Shown: positions 54,926 through 64,000 of the stretch, in pieces
Layout of the letters: each line of letters opens with the position of its first letter
Numbering within the stretch: the first letter of the stretch is position 1
DNA from: Acidimicrobiaceae bacterium
GTDB lineage: Bacteria > Actinomycetota > Acidimicrobiia > Acidimicrobiales > UBA8190
NCBI GenBank assembly: GCA_003151475.1
Contig: PLXQ01000017.1
Location: 1 to 64,000, forward strand
Direction: 5' to 3'
Length of the DNA stretch: 64,000 bases
Notes under the pieces: model-generated
The model's database searches: none
What the model saw: the letters and a program-made list of their open reading frames with translations, nothing else
What the model was told of the DNA's origin: nothing
Program-made: the position numbers and the translations under genes

Positions 54926-55390
54926 CGAGCCGGACACCGGCCGGGCTTATCCGGCGCCGCAAGTGTTCCCTTGGCGCCTCAGTTACTCACTCAGCTCGGG
55001 GCTAGCCCACCGCCGTCCGGTCATGGTGTGTCCAAGCATTCGGCCATATCAACGACCGAACAACGACCGAGCCACAGTCGGGTTCTCGGGAGATCTTCAT
55101 GATCCGGTCATGATTGGTTGGGCATCATGTCGTCAAAGGCGGTGAATGACGATTACTCGGTACGACCCAGGATGTTGCCACGCCCCGTATGAGGTGCAAC
55201 GCGCCCATCGCCCTGGCCTCCGCCACCAGCCGGCTCCGGCGATAGGACAACTGATCCAACGATTGAGCGGACCCACGCACGACCGTTCCTATGCGTGCTG
55301 CCCCGTCTCCCGATCCTGGGGTTCGAAACTCACAGGATCCTCACAGGCTACGTACATGGATCACTCAACCTCGCCTGGCAAGGTGACCCG
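54926..55390 (+). other. No confident gene; probable terminator and promoter region
   Basis: No open frame here has a protein-like pattern and recognisable domain. GCCGGA and TCCGGC arms just after the MerR stop (about 54930-54957) could form a terminator. The right end leads into the ferric-reductase operon. I see no RNA gene or clean -35/-10 pair. Confidence 0.45.
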
Positions 55391-56782
55391 GTGACGCCGG
55401 CTATGAAGATAACTCCTGCTCCTCGTAGCGTCACGACAGGCGACGCCCAGGTGCCCCGATCGGGCCACGCGCCTTTGCCGTGGGTCGCCGACGCCTTCGC
55501 CGCACTCGCCGGCCTTGGCCTCGCCGTGACACTGGCCCTCGTCATCACCGGTGAGACACGCGGCTCGCTGGCGGCGCCCGGTGGTTGGCTTATCGCCGGC
55601 GGCCGGTTTGCCGGATTGACGGGTGCCTACCTCATGTTGGTCTTGGTTGTCCTCATCGCCCGCCTGCCCTGGCTCGAGCGGGCCGTGGGCCAGGATCGGC
55701 TCGTCCTTTGGCACCGCCGGATCGGACCGTGGGTTCTTATCCTCATCACCGCCCACGTCGTGCTCATTACCCTCGGGTATTCCAAGCTTGCCAAGGTGGG
55801 GCCACTCCACCAGTTGTGGGTCTTTCTCAGTTCTTATCCCGACCTGCTGGCCGCCGCAGCCGGCTTCTGTCTCGTCATCATGGCCGGGGTCACGTCGATC
55901 AGGATTGCCCGTCGACGCATCAAGTACGAGACGTGGTGGGTGGTTCACCTCTATATGTATCTTGCCCTCTCGCTCGCATTCGCCCACCAGATCGTCACCG
56001 GCGGTTCGTTCATCGGCCATCCCCTGACCCGGGCCATCTGGATAACGATGTGGACAGCGACGGCGGGAATGGTCATCGTATTCCGGATTCTCCAGCCGAT
56101 CGGTCGGAGCCTTCGACACCAACTCAAGGTCTCCTTCGTCCGGGAAGAGGCACCGGGGGTATTCTCGGTCGTCTGCTCCGGGCGACGTCTCGATCGGCTG
56201 GCGGTATCGGGGGGCCAGTTCTTCCAGTGGCGATTCTTCACCAAGGAGCTGTGGTGGCACGCACACCCGTACTCGATCTCGGCGCTCCCGAGTCCTCCGT
56301 ATATCCGACTGACAGTCAAGGGTTTGGGCGATCAGAGTCGCGCCGTCTCCCAGCTCAAGCCGGGAACTCGCGTGGGCATCGAGGGACCCTACGGCGCGTT
56401 TACGCATCACGCCCGTTCTTCTGACCGAGTCGTATTGATAGGCGCCGGAGTCGGATTGACCCCACTGCGCGCTCTTCTCGAGGACCTACCGCCGTGGGTG
56501 GCGGTCTCGGTCATTGTTCGAGCGTCCACGGCGAAGGAGATCGTCCACCGCGACGAGGTCGTTGACCTCGTCGAGCAGCGAGGTGGTCGGTTCCACGAGA
56601 TTATCGGCTCGCGCGAAAAGGTCCGCTTCGATTCCCGTGTGCTCCAACGACTCGAACCCGACATCGCGAGCAGCGACGTATACGTCTGTGGTCCGGAAGG
56701 GTTTAGCAAGAGGGTCATGGTGGCGGCGCAAAAGCTCGGAGTACATCGTGACAACATCCATCACGAAGCGTTTACGTTCTAG
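55391..56782 (+). CDS. Ferric-reductase-like membrane flavoprotein (FRD/FNR type)
   Basis: A 463-residue protein. Residues about 25-250 hold six transmembrane segments with the heme-type histidines (LWHRRIGPWVLILITAHVVL and WWVVHLYMYLALSLAFAHQI). Residues 250-463 form an FAD/NAD(P)-binding ferredoxin-reductase domain, with HPYSISALPSPP (FAD), GIEGPYGAF and GAGVGLTPLRALL, ending in VCGPEGFSKRV. It would move electrons from NAD(P)H across or into the membrane. GTG 55391 (an ATG lies 12 nt on). Together with the FMN-binding protein and ApbE that follow, it forms a transmembrane electron-transfer unit. Confidence 0.9.
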   Translation: MTPAMKITPAPRSVTTGDAQVPRSGHAPLPWVADAFAALAGLGLAVTLALVITGETRGSLAAPGGWLIAGGRFAGLTGAYLMLVLVVLIARLPWLERAVGQDRLVLWHRRIGPWVLILITAHVVLITLGYSKLAKVGPLHQLWVFLSSYPDLLAAAAGFCLVIMAGVTSIRIARRRIKYETWWVVHLYMYLALSLAFAHQIVTGGSFIGHPLTRAIWITMWTATAGMVIVFRILQPIGRSLRHQLKVSFVREEAPGVFSVVCSGRRLDRLAVSGGQFFQWRFFTKELWWHAHPYSISALPSPPYIRLTVKGLGDQSRAVSQLKPGTRVGIEGPYGAFTHHARSSDRVVLIGAGVGLTPLRALLEDLPPWVAVSVIVRASTAKEIVHRDEVVDLVEQRGGRFHEIIGSREKVRFDSRVLQRLEPDIASSDVYVCGPEGFSKRVMVAAQKLGVHRDNIHHEAFTF

Positions 56783-56828
56783 GTCCTGAGGAATCGAACC
56801 CGGTGTCCATTAAATCTGAAGAATCTCG

Positions 56829-57356
56829 ATGAGACGTACGCCCATCGTGATGGCGGCCACGGCGGCAGGGCTCGCTGGCGTTCTCACTTTCCATACAAAG
56901 TCTGCCCCCGTCTCCCTCGGCGCCATTCCCGGGGCATCTGCCACCACGCGCCCTCCGACCACGACCAACGCCGGTGGATCTCCGCCGAATCAAGGCTCCT
57001 CCAGCGGGAGTTCTCCCCCCCAGGCGACCACACCGACGACGGTTCCCCCGACCACTCCGTCGACATCTCCGGCAACGACACGAAGTGCCACCGGCCCACA
57101 GGTTAACTACAGCTACGGCGTCCTTTCGGTCAAGGTCACGGCGAAGGGCAAGCAGATCACCAACATCAACATCGCCTCACTCGACGACGGTGGGAACTTT
57201 CGGTCTCAGTCCATCGATCAGCAGTCGATTCCCCTTCTCGAACAACAGGCGCTACAGGCACAGAGTGCAAATATCCAAGGCGTGTCGGGTGCGAGCTACA
57301 CGAGCGCCGGGTTCACGCAGTCACTCCAAGCGGCGCTGTCCAAGCTCGGCTTCTGA
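56829..57356 (+). CDS. Exported FMN-binding protein
   Basis: A 175-residue protein with an N-terminal signal/anchor (residues 1-22) and a long Thr/Pro/Ser-rich linker (35-88). A compact FMN-binding domain (90-175) follows, with SYGVLSVKVTAKGKQITNIN and SIPLLEQQAL. The flavinylation region is GVSGASYTSAG (151-161), where FMN is likely attached covalently to S156 or T158 by ApbE. Sitting 46 bp after the reductase and directly before apbE, it should accept electrons outside the membrane and pass them to an unknown acceptor. Confidence 0.88.
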   Translation: MRRTPIVMAATAAGLAGVLTFHTKSAPVSLGAIPGASATTRPPTTTNAGGSPPNQGSSSGSSPPQATTPTTVPPTTPSTSPATTRSATGPQVNYSYGVLSVKVTAKGKQITNINIASLDDGGNFRSQSIDQQSIPLLEQQALQAQSANIQGVSGASYTSAGFTQSLQAALSKLGF

Positions 57357-58171
57357 TGACATCCATCCTCTCCACCGTCGGTGAATTGCCCGACGAAGCC
57401 CACGCGATCCATCACCTCGAGCCCGTGATGGGCACCGTAGTGACCATCGACGTCTACGCCAGAGAAGGCATGAGACCCCCCGAGATCACTCTCGGTCTGG
57501 CCCGGGCGCGTGCCACGCTCCGGCGCGCCGACGCCGTTTTCAGCACCTGGAAGGTGGACAGCCCGATGAGTCGTCTGCGCCGGGGGGAGATCACCTGTGA
57601 GGAAGCCCCGGCCGAGGTGGCCTTAGTCCTCGGGCAGTGTGCGATCGCACGCGAGATGTCTCGCGGGTGGTTCGACCCTTGGGCGATGCCTGGGGGTCTC
57701 GACCCGACGGGATACGTGAAGGGATGGGCCGCCCAGCGTGCCCTCACCGCCCTTGCCTCAAGCGGGATGACCGGTGCGATGGTCAACGCTGCCGGAGACA
57801 TCGCCAGTTTCGGGGGTCCCGAGCCCGCCACGCAGTTCAGGATCGGCATCGTCGACCCCTTTGCACGGGGCCAACTGGCCTGTGTCGTCGAGCTCGCCGG
57901 AGCGCTGGCGACATCGGGCAATTACGAGCGCGGCAATCATCTGATCGATCCCCGGACGGGTCGGCCGGCGACTTGCGTCGCCTCAGCCAGCGTCAGTGGC
58001 CCCGACCTCGGTCTCGCCGACGCCCTCGCCACAGCTGTGGCCGTCGCAGGGGAGGCCGCCCTGGACACGATCTCCGCTCTCGATGACTACGAGGCGCTCA
58101 TTATCACTCTCGATGGCAACTGGAGATGGACGGAAGGTTTTCCGTTTGCGTCTCCAGATGCGTCGTCATAA
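57356..58171 (+). CDS. apbE: FAD:protein FMN transferase (ApbE)
   Basis: A 271-residue ApbE-type flavin transferase. Family elements: LEPVMGTVVTIDVY (about 21-34), FDPWAMPGGLDPTGYVKGWA (about 102-121), MVNAAGDIASFGG (about 141-153) and NYERGNHLIDPRTG (about 184-197). It transfers FMN from FAD to a Ser/Thr of flavoproteins. No signal peptide is evident, which is odd because the target domain is outside; it may act before export. ATG overlaps the stop of the FMN-binding gene (TGATG), and that protein is its obvious substrate. Confidence 0.92.
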   Translation: MTSILSTVGELPDEAHAIHHLEPVMGTVVTIDVYAREGMRPPEITLGLARARATLRRADAVFSTWKVDSPMSRLRRGEITCEEAPAEVALVLGQCAIAREMSRGWFDPWAMPGGLDPTGYVKGWAAQRALTALASSGMTGAMVNAAGDIASFGGPEPATQFRIGIVDPFARGQLACVVELAGALATSGNYERGNHLIDPRTGRPATCVASASVSGPDLGLADALATAVAVAGEAALDTISALDDYEALIITLDGNWRWTEGFPFASPDASS

Positions 58172-58273: not shown

Positions 58274-59317
58274 ATGATCTCGAAGTTGGGTGGCCGAAGA
58301 GACAAACGCAGGTCCTCGCGATCAACAGTTCCTCGCCTCGCGTGGCCGCTGGGTGGGCTCGCCGTAGCCTCCGTTGTCGCCATAGTCGTTGCCGTCTCGG
58401 TGGGGACCAGTGGCTTGGGGATTCGGGCAAGGCAATCGGATGATGTGCATCGGAACCACCTTTCCCGCACGACAACGACAGCGACAGCGACAACCACGCA
58501 ACCGGTACCGCAACCCCCATATGCCATAGAGAGCGAGACAATCACTCTCGACGACCCGACCCGTGATACGCCTGCCCGGGGGGACGTTCCTGGAGCATCG
58601 GGACGGGTGTTGGTCACCGACATCCGCCGCCCGATAGGCCCGAGAGGTCCGCTACCTCTGGTTGTCTTCGCCCACGGATGGAACAGCAACCCCACGGCTG
58701 ACGAAACCCTCCTCGACTCTTGGGCCGCCGCCGGCTATCTGGTGGCGGCCCCCGTGTTTCCTGATTCGACCGACACCCTTCCCGGCACGCCTGTGAGCAA
58801 TTACCCCGAACAGGCGCTCGATCTATCGTTCATCATCACTTCGATGCTCGGAGGTCGGGCCGGACCGGTCGACCCGAACCGCATCGCCGTGGCCGGCCAT
58901 TCCGACGGCGGCACCGACATTGCTCTCCTGGCCCTCAACCCTTCGTACGCCGATCACCGCATAAGGGCTTACCTCTCGCTATCGGGAGAGATCCCAGCGG
59001 GAGTACCTGGGCCGTGGGGTGTGGCGACTCCCGGTTCTCTGCTGGTAGCGGTCGGCACCGATGACCAGTACGGCCTGCTGGTGAGATCGACACAGGTGTT
59101 TGACACGGCGAATACGACCGCCAAAGTTCTGCTTCGTGTAACAGGCGGTGACCACCTGGAGATGTACGTCGGCTCTTCACCGGAAGCCATGGCATTGCGA
59201 GCCGACACCGTGCTCTTTCTGAACGATGCTCTTCGCCCTGCAGGCGCGACCTCCGCCAAGCTCCTTTCAGCCCTGGAACAATCCGGCCAGCCGTCGATTG
59301 TCGTGTCAAACAACTAG
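58274..59317 (+). CDS. Exported alpha/beta hydrolase
   Basis: A 347-residue protein with an N-terminal membrane segment (residues 25-48, LGGLAVASVVAIVVAVSVG) and a Thr-rich linker. The hydrolase domain has oxyanion region VVFAHGWNSNP (about 130) and nucleophile elbow VAGHSDGGTD (about 206). The probable histidine lies in TGGDHLEMYVGS (about 293). It resembles the lipoprotein hydrolase at 20451 in layout and length, so the two may be paralogues. The role is probably esterase or lipase on the outside of the membrane. It follows apbE by 100 bp, with its own ribosome-binding site (AGGATG). Confidence 0.85.
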   Translation: MISKLGGRRDKRRSSRSTVPRLAWPLGGLAVASVVAIVVAVSVGTSGLGIRARQSDDVHRNHLSRTTTTATATTTQPVPQPPYAIESETITLDDPTRDTPARGDVPGASGRVLVTDIRRPIGPRGPLPLVVFAHGWNSNPTADETLLDSWAAAGYLVAAPVFPDSTDTLPGTPVSNYPEQALDLSFIITSMLGGRAGPVDPNRIAVAGHSDGGTDIALLALNPSYADHRIRAYLSLSGEIPAGVPGPWGVATPGSLLVAVGTDDQYGLLVRSTQVFDTANTTAKVLLRVTGGDHLEMYVGSSPEAMALRADTVLFLNDALRPAGATSAKLLSALEQSGQPSIVVSNN

Positions 59318-59504: not shown

Positions 59505-60127
59505 CGAATTTGGTTGGTGGACCTTGAGTCACACAATCAGCTCGACGATCGTCGCTACGGGACGGTGCGAGTGCGGGCCTGGCACAACTGGCACCCGAAA
59601 CTCCATCGCCGGGGACGATGGCCGGGGACGAGATCCCGATCGTGCGCGGCAGTGTGATCCGCGTCGACGTCGAACATCTCCCGAACCCGACCGGGCGCAC
59701 CAAGAAGACGGTGTGGCTGTGGTGGTCAGGGCCTCGTGCGCCCGATCTCAAGCTGTGTTTCCGTGCCTACTTGCGGCGCTTCGACATCGCGCATGCCTAC
59801 CGCTTCGTGAAGAACACCCTCGGGTGGACGACACCGTCGCTGCAGATGCCCGAGCAAGCCGACCGCTGGACCTGGATCGTGATCGGCGCCTATACCCAGC
59901 TCCGATTAGCGCGACAGCTCGTCGACGACCTTCGGCTGCCGTGGGAACGCCGCCTGGATCCAGCACGGCTCACCCCGGCGCGGGTTCGCCGAGGGTTTCG
60001 TCGACTTCGTGCAACGCTGGGCACTCCCGCCAGTCCACCGAAATCCGATACTCCCAGTCCGGGCCGACCGCTCGGCACACGAACGGGACCGCTCAAGCGA
60101 TATCCGGCCATCAAAAAGAGCGCTTGA
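59505..60127 (+). pseudogene. C-terminal remnant of an IS701-like (DDE) transposase
   Basis: The fragment begins in mid-gene (VDLESHNQLDDRRYGTVRVR), then shifts frame at about 59620. It continues IVRGSVIRVDVEHLPNPTGR and AYLRRFDIAHAYRFVKNTLG, followed by WTWIVIGAYTQLRLARQLV, and ends with the basic RRGFRRLRATLGTPASPPK. This is the second half of an IS701-type/NF041680-like transposase. Restoring one G at CGATGG(G)CCGG joins the frames. The N-terminal third, with the first catalytic Asp, and both IS ends are missing, so it is inactive in any case. Confidence 0.7.
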
Positions 60128-60604
60128 CACAGTCCTCAGCGTTTAATCGCAAGCTAAGAACCCAACGATCATCGGCCCCATCATCCGCCTTGACTGACGA
60201 TGTGGGCCTCAGTCTTGTCCGGTAGTCCCGCCAGGATTCGAACCCGTGTCTCCAGTGGATGCAGGTCAGTGCTGTTCTCCCAGGTCAGGAGGGTGGACTT
60301 GTCCTGCCCGTCCACTCGATTCCACCGAGTATTGCCGAAAAGATGGACAACTGGATGGACAACTTTGCAATTCTGGACGCCCAAAATTCAGCACTTCCGT
60401 CCCCGCAAGACAGTCTGCTCACTTCCTCCACACCCTCGTGCAAGAGGTGACCGCCGAGTACCTTCGCGCTCCGTGCCGCTTGTCTGCCCCGAATCACTTC
60501 GCTTCCGGCGAACGATCTGTGTGCCCGAGGGCCGATAGCGGGTGGCAGTGCTCGCGAACATTACAGCGCCCGCAACGGCACATGGGCAGTGCATTCAAAT
60601 GCTG
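60128..60604 (+). other. Non-coding stretch with a tRNA- or tmRNA-like 3' fragment
   Basis: At 60222-60262 the minus strand reads as a T arm (ACGGG, TTCGAAT, CCTGG) followed by acceptor-like GCGGGACTACC. This resembles the 3' end of a tRNA or tmRNA, a common integration target. I could not complete a tRNA around it. About 90 bp further on, GGATGGACAACT-type 12-mers are directly repeated (60342-60364). No gene is convincing. The stretch lies between a transposase remnant and the SET-domain gene. Confidence 0.35.
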
Positions 60605-61183
60605 TCAGCCCGTTGAGGCTGTGCCGGAGTGAGCCAGCCGTATCTCGTTGTCCATCGTGAGCAGATAGGGAGCGACTAGGTCGCCGTAACCTGCCTTTTG
60701 CGCTGCGGTCAGGTCCTTCCAGCCAGTAACCGAGCCACGGCACCGTGGTGCACCACACAGGCACACAGCCGGGAAGTGGTCGATGGTGAAGTTACGCATT
60801 GCGTAGTCGAAGGTCAGTTCCTGCCCAGCGTGGATCTGCTGGCGGGCGACGAGATCGAAGGCTTGCTCATCATTGAGGCGCACACCGCAGTTGGGGTCGC
60901 ATGAGTGGTTGACTTTCGGGCCCAGCCCGCCGTGGCGCGCCCAACGATCTGGACCTACCTGTGTGGCGTGGGAGTCGTTCTCTTTCAGCGCCCCAACCAG
61001 GAAACCGACCATTACTGTCTCGCCAGCAGCGAACGAGCGTGTGGTCAGAACTCCGTCGCCCGTGCCGTCAGCGGTGCAACGCAACGTGACGCCCTCCTCG
61101 TCGGAGCCCTGGGTGAGGTGTGGTCCGCCCTCCGTGAAGTACAGCGATTGGCCACTAAGCGATTCGCTTGCAGCAAGCGGCAA
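60605..61183 (-). CDS. SET-domain protein (protein lysine methyltransferase-like), 5' end uncertain
   Basis: A 192-residue protein with SET motifs: the TTRSFAAGETV start (about 47-57), NHSCDPNCGVR (92-102, cofactor and pseudoknot region), ELTFDYAMRN (122-131) and a post-SET zinc-type C141-L-C143-x4-C148. The residues for S-adenosylmethionine binding are present. It would methylate a lysine; the substrate is unknown and bacterial SET proteins are uncommon. The only start is TTG 61183, just 11 bp from the end of the IS3 element, so the true N terminus and promoter may have been lost to the insertion. Confidence 0.8.
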   Translation of the reverse strand: MPLAASESLSGQSLYFTEGGPHLTQGSDEEGVTLRCTADGTGDGVLTTRSFAAGETVMVGFLVGALKENDSHATQVGPDRWARHGGLGPKVNHSCDPNCGVRLNDEQAFDLVARQQIHAGQELTFDYAMRNFTIDHFPAVCLCGAPRCRGSVTGWKDLTAAQKAGYGDLVAPYLLTMDNEIRLAHSGTASTG

Positions 61184-61194
61184 AGTGGACTTGA

Positions 61195-61210
61195 TCCGGT
61201 TTGACGGACA
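61195..61210 (+). repeat. IS3 left terminal inverted repeat
   Basis: TCCGGTTTGACGGACA, perfectly inverted at 63904-63919. The TGAC core inside is typical of IS3-family ends. Confidence 0.88.
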
Positions 61211-61225
61211 AGTTGCCTGTGCTGA

Positions 61226-61504
61226 TTATGCCGCCTGACGGCGGTGGTTGGCTTCCCACTCGGCCGGACTGCAGTAGTCGAGAGTGCTGTGCAGGCGCCT
61301 GACGTTGTACCAGCCTTCGATGTAGTCGAAGATGGCGCGTCGTAGGCCTTCGCGCGTCGGCCAGGCGCGGGTGTCGATGAGCTCTCGTTTGATGGTGGCG
61401 AAGAAGCTCTCGGCCACGGCGTTATCCCAGCATTCGCCCTTGCGCCCGATCGACAACACGATGCCGTTCACCCTGGCCAGCGCGCCGTAGTCGGCACTCG
61501 TATA
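61226..61504 (-). pseudogene. IS3 orfB, 3' part (disrupted by IS30)
   Basis: C-terminal piece of the IS3 integrase-type transposase: YTSADYGALARVNGIVLSIG, then the DDE glutamate in NAVAESFFATIKRELID, and the end YCSPAEWEANHRRQAA. It directly continues the 5' part that stops at C-Q at 62965. The IS30 insertion separates the second Asp from the Glu of the catalytic triad, so the transposase is inactive. Confidence 0.88.
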
Positions 61505-61509
61505 TTGAC

Positions 61510-62959
61510 TGAGTTCAATCGGTCGTCGCAACACCGGCCTTCTGGAGCAAAAGTACATGCTCGTCGAAGGCTTCGGCGGGAGTCTTCCAATCAAGGGTCT
61601 TGCGGGGTCGGCTGTTGAGCATGGCAGCAACCGCGTCGATCTCTTCAGCATTCCAGCGCGAGAGGTCAGTGCCCTTGGGGAAGTATTGGCGCAGGAGTCC
61701 GTTGGTGTTCTCGTTGCTGCCGCGTTGCCAAGGACTGCGAGGGTCGGCGAAATAGACCGGGATGCCCGTCTCGACTTTGAACGCTGCATGTTGAGAGAGC
61801 TCCTTGCCTCTGTCCCACGTTAGGGATCGGAGGAGCTGCTCTGGGAGGGTGGTCATCTTGGCAGAGAGTGCTTCTTTCATCGTGACCGCTCCATAACCGG
61901 CGAGCGCCGGCCCGTTCTTGACGGTGTGCTTATGTCGATAGCCCTCTTCTCGAGGCAGATGGATCAGCATGGTGAACCTCGTGGTCCGCTCGACCACCGT
62001 GCCGATGGCCGAGCGTTCCAATCCGATGATGAGATCGCCTTCCCAGTGCCCGGGGACGGCACGATCGTCAGCTTCGGCCGGTCGCTCGCTGATCATCACC
62101 TCAGGAGTGACGTGACCCCAGGCTTTCTGTTGTGACCGGGAGCGGGGCACTCGCAAGGCCCGGCCGGTCCGCAAGCAAGCCACCAGCTCGCGCTTGAGGG
62201 CCCCTCGGCCTTGGACGTAGAGCGCCTGGTAGATCGCCTCGTGGCTGATCCGCATGGACTCATCATCGGGGAAATCGACCCTCAGGCGCTTGGAGATCTG
62301 TTGGGGACTCCAGGCCTTCACCCAGCGGCGATCGGCCCGATGGGGCTTGCCCTTTCCGTTCCACTTTGGACCAGGCGGGCCGACAAGTCGACCATCGGGT
62401 GTTTTCTTGACGCCGGACAATTGCTCCTGGACGTAGTTGCGCAGGAACTCGTTGGTGGCCATCTTGGCCACCTTGGGTCTGCGTGCCCGCCGCTCGGCAT
62501 GCCACTGGGCGGTTGACGCCTTGTAGATGGGCGGATACTCCCTCGACGACGCGTTGCGACGCAGTTCCCGGGAGATGGTCGAGGGGCTCCGTCTCAACCG
62601 TCGGGCGATCTCGCGGACGCAGACCTTTTGGGCATACCAGATGGCAATGTCCTCACGCTCTGAGAACGATAAGTAGCGGCCAGTCACTGTCTGAGGAAGG
62701 CAAGGGTTCACGCCACCAGCGTGGCGGAACCACCGGTAGGCGACGGGGGATGAGACCCCCGCCTCCTCGCCCGCATCTTCGGTCTTCAGGCCGCGGGCGA
62801 TCGCCGCCCAGAACCGGACCCGGTCCTGTCGCCACGCCACGCTGGGCCTTCCCGGTGAGGGAATATGCCCCCGATAGAGGCGGACTTCCTTTTGTCGGTT
62901 CCTGTTGCGCATCGCACACCTCTCTTGTCGAGGTGTTGCGACGACCATTTGAATTCACC
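61510..62959 (-). mobile_element. Complete IS30-family insertion sequence inside IS3 orfB
   Basis: About 1.45 kb. The ends are imperfect inverted repeats: TGAGTTCAATCGGTCGTCGC at the left against TGAATTCAAATGGTCGTCGC (reverse complement) at the right, both followed by AACACC. TTGAC flanks it on both sides (61505-61509 and 62960-62964); the uninterrupted site carries one copy. A target duplication of TTG (3 bp, usual for IS30) or TTGAC therefore fits. One intact transposase is inside. Confidence 0.88.
61515..62912 (-). CDS. IS30-family transposase, intact
   Basis: A 465-residue transposase. The N terminus has two helix-turn-helix parts: GLKTEDAGEEAGVSSPVAYR and FSEREDIAIWYAQKVCVREI. The DDE catalytic core shows D in GHWEGDLIIGL, D in LTWDRGKELSQH and E in QRGSNENTNGLLRQ, all with IS30 spacing. 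ATG 62912 has GAGAGG seven bases upstream; the frame opens slightly further. The element looks able to transpose. It is in the same orientation as the IS3 genes. Confidence 0.92.
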   Translation of the reverse strand: MRNRNRQKEVRLYRGHIPSPGRPSVAWRQDRVRFWAAIARGLKTEDAGEEAGVSSPVAYRWFRHAGGVNPCLPQTVTGRYLSFSEREDIAIWYAQKVCVREIARRLRRSPSTISRELRRNASSREYPPIYKASTAQWHAERRARRPKVAKMATNEFLRNYVQEQLSGVKKTPDGRLVGPPGPKWNGKGKPHRADRRWVKAWSPQQISKRLRVDFPDDESMRISHEAIYQALYVQGRGALKRELVACLRTGRALRVPRSRSQQKAWGHVTPEVMISERPAEADDRAVPGHWEGDLIIGLERSAIGTVVERTTRFTMLIHLPREEGYRHKHTVKNGPALAGYGAVTMKEALSAKMTTLPEQLLRSLTWDRGKELSQHAAFKVETGIPVYFADPRSPWQRGSNENTNGLLRQYFPKGTDLSRWNAEEIDAVAAMLNSRPRKTLDWKTPAEAFDEHVLLLQKAGVATTD

Positions 62960-62964
62960 TTGAC

Positions 62965-63559
62965 AGCCGCGGTCCGAATGAAAAATGAGACCCTTCACCG
63001 GACAACGGTTCCTGATGGCCATCTTCAGGGCGTCGGAGACCAGTTCGGTGCGCATGTGGTCGGCCAGGGCCCAGCCCACGACCCGCCGAGACGACAGGTC
63101 GATGACGGTGGCCAGATACGCCCACCCCTCCCAGGTGGCGACGTAGGTGATATCGCCGACATAGCGCCGGTCGATCTCGGCTCCAGGGCCGAAGGCCCGT
63201 TGGATGTGGTCCAGGGCGGCCTCGGCGGCCGGGTCGGCCACCGTCGTCTTGCGCCACCGCTTCTTGCACCGCCCCTCGAGCCCGGCGAAACGCATGAGCC
63301 GGCCCACCCGGCGCTTACCGCAGTCGACACCTTGTTTGCGCAGGGCCCGATGGACGCGGGGAGATCCATAGGTGCCCTTGGACTCGGCGTGGACGGCAGT
63401 GATCTGTTCGGTGAGCTCGGCGTCGGAGCGCTGCTTGGCCGACGGGGTCCCATGCAGGTGCTCGTAGAAGGCGGCACGGGAGACCTTCAGCAGCTCGCAG
63501 CATCGTTTCACGCTGCGACCTGCCACTTTCTCCGCCACGATGAAGGGGTGAACCTTCAT
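62965..63559 (-). pseudogene. IS3 orfB, 5' part (disrupted by IS30)
   Basis: N-terminal part of the IS3 integrase-type transposase. It starts at ATG 63559, overlapping the orfA stop (ATGA), with KVHPFIVAEKVAGRSVKRCC. It goes through KGTYGSPRVHRALRKQGVDC and the first catalytic Asp in VGDITYVATWEGW. It then reaches the second Asp region GLIFHSDRGCQ, where the IS30 insertion cuts in. A fused OrfAB would normally come from a programmed -1 frameshift in orfA. Confidence 0.88.
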
Positions 63560-63873
63560 CGGGTCTCCTCTGCGAAGAAAGCTGTGGCTCGCTTCAGGAT
63601 CTCGACGTCCTCGCGCAGGCGCTTGTTCTCCCGCTTGAGACGGGCCAGCTCCTGGCGCTCCTCGGTGCTGAGCCCGTCGCGTTCGCCGGCGTCGACCTCG
63701 GCCTGCTTCACCCACGACCGCACCGCCGTCTCGGTCAGCTCGAAGTCCTTGGCCACCTGGGCGATTGAGCGGTCACCGGCTCGGCAGCGCTCGACGATGT
63801 CAGCCTTGAACTCCGGGGTGAACGACCGACGAGGACGGGGCTTCTTCCGTTCCATGGTCTCCATTTTGGACAT
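63556..63873 (-). CDS. IS3 orfA (helix-turn-helix protein)
   Basis: A 105-residue OrfA. After a basic start it has RSFTPEFKADIVERCRAGDR and the helix-turn-helix SIAQVAKDFELTETAVRSWV, then the leucine-zipper-like ARLKRENKRLREDVEILKRA. It binds the IS ends and regulates transposition. Intact here, but its partner orfB is broken. The start ATG 63873 has GGAAAGG immediately upstream; ATG 63864 and ATG 63855 are alternatives. Confidence 0.9.
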   Translation of the reverse strand: MSKMETMERKKPRPRRSFTPEFKADIVERCRAGDRSIAQVAKDFELTETAVRSWVKQAEVDAGERDGLSTEERQELARLKRENKRLREDVEILKRATAFFAEETR

Positions 63874-63903
63874 CCTTTCCGGGGCTACGCCCCTGATGTT
63901 GGA

Positions 63904-63919
63904 TGTCCGTCAAACCGGA
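63904..63919 (-). repeat. IS3 right terminal inverted repeat
   Basis: TGTCCGTCAAACCGGA, the perfect inverse of 61195-61210. Confidence 0.88.
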
Positions 63920-64000
63920 GGAAGCCCAAAGACCGAGATGGTTGGGCATGGAGCAAGGGAACCTCTTCCGGTTGGTGTCCTCGGAGGAACGTCTGATTTT
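63920..64000. other. Right window edge, nothing assignable
   Basis: Eighty bases to the window end with no stop-to-stop information long enough to judge. They may belong to the gene or region that the IS3 element entered. Confidence 0.4.

What the first reader, a model, noticed from the sequence alone, without database searches (positions are those of the whole stretch)
60605..61210. Bacterial SET-domain gene abutting the IS3 end
SET methyltransferases are uncommon in bacteria. This one keeps the cofactor and catalytic residues plus a post-SET cysteine set, but its only start is a TTG 11 bp from an IS end. It may be truncated, or transcribed from a promoter in the IS.
Basis: partly seen in the sequence, partly recalled or inferred. 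Interest (0 to 1): 0.52.

Follow-up and report, generated by a model that had tools for sequence, protein, structure and literature searches.

The report
SET methyltransferase gene split by IS3

Summary
The SET ORF is real (Pfam SET, 43 bits). It is not a gene with an odd TTG start. It is the 3' part (192 codons) of a gene interrupted by an IS3-family element.

The IS3 right end is at 61186, two bases from the TTG. Its left end is at 63928. The ends are inverted repeats matching at 22 of 26 positions, with a 3-bp duplication, AAG, on both sides. Beyond the far end lies the missing 5' end: a Shine-Dalgarno, a TTG start at 63956 (- strand) and nine codons, matching the closest homologue L004, which is uninterrupted there. 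Eleven of 13 homologues start at that upstream position, so the window's TTG is an internal codon. An IS30-family element (61510-62957) sits inside the IS3.

No outward promoter was found in the IS end, and the TTG has no better Shine-Dalgarno than random sequence. The coding part shows no decay (dN 0.019, dS 0.27 against L004), so the insertion is probably recent.

The clade is a patchily distributed, stand-alone SET methyltransferase of Actinomycetota without conserved neighbours. Its closest solved relative by profile is BurB, a methionine S-methyltransferase, but BurB membership is inconclusive and the substrate unknown.

The parts
60605..61183 (-). 3' part of the SET gene: 192 codons plus stop, with an internal TTG codon that happens to open the remaining ORF
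   Evidence: DNA match to L004 begins at this TTG, 90.9% over 570 nt
61183..61185 (.). 3-bp target-site duplication AAG, copy 1
61186..63928 (-). IS3-family element, 2743 bp including the nested IS30; orfA 63556-63873, orfB ORF listed from 63715, interrupted, its tail at 61226-about 61509
   Evidence: ends and length; ORFs; Pfam HTH_Tnp_1, HTH_21, rve, rve_2 and rve_3
61510..62957 (-). IS30-family element inserted in the IS3 orfB; terminal inverted repeats 61510-61535 and 62932-62957 (26 nt, 88%); transposase 61515-62948
   Evidence: repeats; HTH_38, weak rve
63929..63931 (.). 3-bp target-site duplication AAG, copy 2
63929..63956 (-). native 5' end of the SET gene: TTG start at 63956 and nine codons (MLHAQPSRS) plus one base, up to the IS
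   Evidence: the far flank aligns with L004 (local score 148, best of 200 shuffles 38)
63957..63969 (-). native Shine-Dalgarno region GGAAGAGGTTCCC, identical in L004
   Evidence: duplex energy -9.4

Best explanation
This is a stand-alone SET-domain, SAM-dependent methyltransferase gene, about 201 codons when intact, that was interrupted after its ninth codon by an IS3-family element, which was later hit by an IS30-family element. Shown: the two IS ends, the 3-bp duplication, the 5' end beyond the IS, and the intact coding remainder. Inferred: the remainder is no longer made, or made very poorly, because its promoter side, Shine-Dalgarno and start lie 2.7 kb away behind the IS. Inferred: the intact enzyme moves a methyl group from SAM to a lysine or a small sulfur substrate in the SET cleft. 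The lost nine residues lie in the poorly conserved N-terminal tail, so any polypeptide still made would keep the whole SET and post-SET core. The lack of decay says that the insertion is recent, or that some function remains.
For: Ends with 22 of 26 matching inverted-repeat positions and AAG on both sides; the far flank aligns to L004 through leader, Shine-Dalgarno, TTG and the first codons. BLAST of the near side against L004 starts exactly at the TTG. 11 of 13 homologous loci read for a leader (L004-L016) start at the upstream position, ten with TTG and one (L015) with ATG. Anti-Shine-Dalgarno energy is -9.4 at the native start and -4.9 at the IS-side TTG; 44.8% of 1000 random window sites are as good as the IS side, 6.3% as good as the native site. 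No promoter-like site on the gene's strand. Window vs L004 dN 0.019, dS 0.27 over 146 codons; of 82 columns invariant in the 11 other rows the window changes 3, and L004 changes the same 3 columns.
Against: No expression data. The 192-codon remainder is intact, so residual expression cannot be excluded. The consensus scan covers sigma-70-type promoters only. The native promoter of this copy is not identified: the TATNCT element found at -40/-41 in 9 of 13 homologues is absent from the window's far side and from L004. The substrate is unknown.
Confidence: 0.85

Rival explanations
1. The insertion left a working gene: an outward or hybrid promoter at the IS3 end drives the remainder, and translation starts at the TTG at 61183.
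For: The ORF is intact and the catalytic core unchanged. The removed N-terminal residues are poorly conserved; the two Pseudonocardia rows L012 and L014 have different N termini.
Against: No sigma-70-type site on the gene's strand; Shine-Dalgarno no better than random.
Confidence: 0.12
2. On the substrate: the intact family is a BurB/MSMT-type methionine S-methyltransferase that makes S-methylmethionine.
For: BurB is the best profile hit among solved structures (E 8e-13, against 1e-10 for ASH1L) and aligns over nearly the whole domain, with similar length (172 aa against about 200) (length from PMC12542666). BurB His72, His93 and Tyr124 align with H72, H93 and Y127, invariant in 13 of 13 rows.
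Against: BurB's SAM contact Arg42 aligns with T (6 rows), K (6) or R (1), and His138 with L in 13 of 13; the Arg133 loop is not alignable with confidence. Single-sequence searches rank histone methyltransferases higher. No DMSP-pathway neighbour was recognised in the neighbourhoods read.
Confidence: 0.25
3. On the substrate: the intact family is a protein-lysine methyltransferase acting on a bacterial DNA-binding or ribosomal protein.
For: NHSCDPN, FDY and the CxCx4C post-SET set are all present; top single-sequence solved hits are H3 lysine-4 and ASH1L enzymes. Archaeal Go1-SET methylates the DNA-binding protein MC1-alpha (PMC3980110, passages).
Against: The printed local alignments to eukaryotic enzymes skip the middle of the domain, between the GxG and NHS halves. 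No substrate is suggested by neighbours.
Confidence: 0.45

Closest known systems
BurB, methionine S-methyltransferase of Burkholderia thailandensis (PDB 9l4t, 9l4v; PMC12542666)
   Same: Small single-domain bacterial SET protein with a post-SET cysteine cluster; best profile match among solved structures; equivalents of His72, His93 and Tyr124 conserved
   Different: Arg42 mostly not kept and His138 not conserved; BurB has L where this clade has N in NHSC; no BurI/BurD/BurE-like neighbour recognised
Bacterial proteins annotated 'SET domain-containing protein-lysine N-methyltransferase' (for example NZ_CP015322, NZ_CP034331, NZ_CP092194)
   Same: Single SET domain, on plasmids
   Different: 30-37% identity; this clade has its own N-terminal tail and leader
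Streptomyces plasmid SET genes (NZ_CP108257, NZ_CP108986)
   Same: 48-52% identity; on linear plasmids; an IS30 transposase gene stands upstream of one
   Different: NZ_CP108986 matches in two pieces and is not annotated as one SET gene
IS3 and IS30 family insertion sequences
   Same: orfA/orfB with a DDE (rve) domain and 3-bp duplication; IS30-type HTH_38 transposase with 26-nt terminal repeats
   Different: nothing unusual beyond the nesting

Membership tests
SET-domain methyltransferase (Pfam PF00856) | Profile score over the curated cut-off | tested here: met
   43.3 bits against 22.4
SET-domain methyltransferase (Pfam PF00856) | GxG, NHSC and DY motifs | tested here: met
   DGTGDG, NHSCDPNC, FDY; conserved in 13 rows apart from single substitutions (motif names recalled)
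SET-domain methyltransferase (Pfam PF00856) | Post-SET cysteines CxCx4C | tested here: met
   C141, C143, C148 invariant in 13 of 13 rows
SET-domain methyltransferase (Pfam PF00856) | Predicted SET fold | tested here: inconclusive
   AlphaFold2 model from 13 close rows has mean pLDDT 49; not searched further
BurB/MSMT methionine S-methyltransferase | SAM contacts Arg42, His72, His93, Arg133, His138 | tested here: inconclusive
   His72 and His93 conserved; Arg42 aligns with T41 (K or R in 7 of 13 rows) and His138 with L142; Arg133 not alignable with confidence
BurB/MSMT methionine S-methyltransferase | Neighbouring DMSP-pathway genes | tested here: inconclusive
   None recognised among the 30 neighbour ORFs scanned by Pfam in 13 of 15 homologous loci, nor in four annotated plasmid neighbourhoods; many held stretches are short and the genes could lie elsewhere
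BurB/MSMT methionine S-methyltransferase | Makes S-methylmethionine | not testable with these tools
   needs an enzyme assay
Protein-lysine methyltransferase | Methylates a protein lysine | not testable with these tools
   needs an enzyme assay
IS3 family element | orfA/orfB with DDE domain, terminal inverted repeats, 3-bp duplication | tested here: met
IS30 family element | HTH_38 plus rve transposase and terminal inverted repeats | tested here: met
   HTH_38 72.7 bits; the rve match is below its cut-off; repeats 26 nt, 88%

The most novel reading that the evidence does not exclude
The intact clade is a horizontally spread, stand-alone SET enzyme that methylates a small sulfur metabolite such as methionine in soil and permafrost Actinomycetota, carried as a gene with its own conserved leader and no pathway neighbours.
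Probability: 0.15. Interest if true: 0.5.

Novelty: new member of a known kind. Interest (0 to 1): 0.2.

Why it matters
It explains the odd start codon without a new mechanism: a textbook IS3 insertion with both gene halves still in place. The useful by-product is a tight clade of small bacterial SET proteins, with a conserved leader and members in isolates (Patulibacter medicamentivorans I11, Pseudonocardia sp. KRD291), whose substrate could be tested directly.

Tried and rejected
Structured leader or riboswitch: 52 columns of leader from 10 loci gave 12 predicted pairs and none with a change on both sides; Rfam found no RNA at the leader in the seven sources searched. Rejected. Viral carriage: no relative in viral contigs or phages. 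Operon function: neighbours differ from locus to locus (transposases, sigma factors, MFS, epimerase, patatin, luciferase-like and others), so no function is read from context. Fold comparison: the model was too poor (mean pLDDT 49) and was not searched. NCBIfam gave no family for three members. A second copy of the tRNA-like 3' end at 60221-60244 was sought by pattern in the assembly and not found. Horizontal spread: the tree of 13 rows has only 2 of 10 inner branches well supported by its own count, so it does not prove transfer by itself; the patchy distribution is the better evidence.

Rows dropped: of 15 loci, A1 used 12 plus the window. L016 (unread residues inside the frame and a frame change after them), L017 (cut off by the contig end) and L018 (33% identity) were left out; L016 was kept for the leader comparison.

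Full report
What is there. The window holds a SET-domain ORF on the - strand, 60605-61183, 192 codons, first codon TTG. Pfam SET matches at 43.3 bits against a cut-off of 22.4, and it is the only SET match in the 4.55-Mb assembly. In the 13-row alignment the DGxGxG stretch, NHSCDPNC, FDY and the CLCG...C cluster are conserved apart from single substitutions.

Why it starts at a TTG beside an IS. The IS3-family element that abuts it runs from 61186 to 63928 (2743 bp). The two ends read TGGACTTGATCCGGTTTGACGGACAA and TGGGCTTCCTCCGGTTTGACGGACAT, 22 of 26 positions alike, and the bases AAG stand on both sides as a target duplication. The first T of the TTG belongs to this duplication, so the distance between TTG and IS is 2 bp, not 11. 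The IS3 is itself interrupted by an IS30-family element at 61510-62957, bounded by 26-nt inverted repeats.

The missing half. Read on the - strand, the DNA beyond the far IS end gives a leader, GGAAGAGGTTCCC, TTG and the codons of LHAQPSRS, then the IS. The leader and start align with the same region of L004 (an Acidimicrobiales MAG; 89% protein identity) at a local score of 148, against a best of 38 in 200 shuffles. On the near side the DNA match to L004 begins exactly at the TTG. So the TTG of the finding is an internal codon (the L in L004's ...SRSLPPAANG...), and the native start is 63956.

Homologues agree. Of the 15 loci found in genome contigs, 13 could be read for a leader; 11 start at the upstream position, ten with TTG and one with ATG, and two Pseudonocardia rows have another N terminus. 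In 11 of 13 the anti-Shine-Dalgarno energy is -9.4 or lower; L007 (-5.5) and L012 (-7.1) are weaker. The window's native site has -9.4, the IS-side TTG -4.9, which 44.8% of 1000 random window sites reach. A TATNCT element stands 40-41 nt upstream of the start in 9 of 13 loci (and at -34 in L005), but not in L004 or on the window's far side, so the promoter of this copy is not identified.

Is it still expressed? The scan of 60400-61700 found one sigma-70-type site, on the other strand and pointing away, with 0.4 expected in shuffles. The coding remainder is unspoiled: dN 0.019 and dS 0.27 against L004 over 146 codons; of 82 columns invariant in the 11 other rows the window changes three, the same three columns as L004. 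The insertion is therefore recent or the remainder still does something; I favour recent and silent.

How rare is it? Pfam SET occurs in 30 of 198 genomes of the class. The close clade is much rarer: in 396 genomes of the phylum 19 match at E <= 0.001, six of these above 200 bits including this genome. Of 17 genomes of the same family only this one has it, and in the relatives search 2 of 60 genomes, this one and one weak match. Relatives at 30-52% identity lie on 14 plasmid records; phages and viral contigs gave none. This patchiness, with different neighbours in each locus, fits a mobile stand-alone gene. The tree places the window with L004 at full support but resolves little else. Several of these loci are short contigs of metagenome bins, so the named host of each is less certain than for the isolates.

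What the intact enzyme may do. In a profile search of solved structures the best hit is BurB (E 8e-13), then ASH1L (1e-10); with single sequences histone methyltransferases rank first and BurB eighth or lower. BurB methylates methionine to S-methylmethionine (PMC12542666; abstract, introduction and results sections read). His72, His93 and Tyr124 of BurB have equivalents here; His138 does not, and Arg42 is T, K or R. So BurB membership is inconclusive. A protein-lysine target is at least as likely. Bacterial SET proteins in free-living species are long known (PMC3980110, passages seen), so the family is not new in kind.

Verdict. Literature searches made; a search for papers with both 'SET domain' and 'Solirubrobacter' found none.

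Noticed in passing
61226-61789: An ORF of 187 aa starts inside the IS30 and runs in frame into the remaining tail of the IS3 orfB; its stop codon at 61226-61228 is in the same frame as the SET ORF.
   Followed up: partly
60221-60244: - strand sequence GGTTCGAATCCTGGCGGGACTACC looks like the 3' end of a tRNA, with no tRNA found here by ARAGORN and no second copy in the assembly; perhaps a remnant of an integration site.
   Followed up: partly
55295-58171: Ferric-reductase-like flavoprotein, FMN-binding-domain protein and ApbE flavin transferase in a row, with a weak chlorophyllase/PAF-acetylhydrolase-like hydrolase (58274-59317) after them.
   Followed up: no
59618-60127: ORF of 169 aa without a Pfam match; by its look possibly a piece of a transposase.
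   Followed up: no
G000:C78:13378-13600: A second, 81% identical piece of the IS3 tail in the same assembly, with a one-mismatch copy of the terminal repeat.
   Followed up: no
L030 and NZ_CP108986 (L052): Other members or relatives of the SET clade also look broken: one with an in-frame TGA, one matching in two pieces and not annotated as one SET gene.
   Followed up: no
L005:772-944: Cobalamin riboswitch upstream of a CbtA cobalt-transporter gene.
   Followed up: no
L006-L011, L013, L015, L016, 40-41 nt upstream of the start: A conserved TATNCT element and leader precede the SET gene in different genomic contexts, as if gene and leader moved together.
   Followed up: partly
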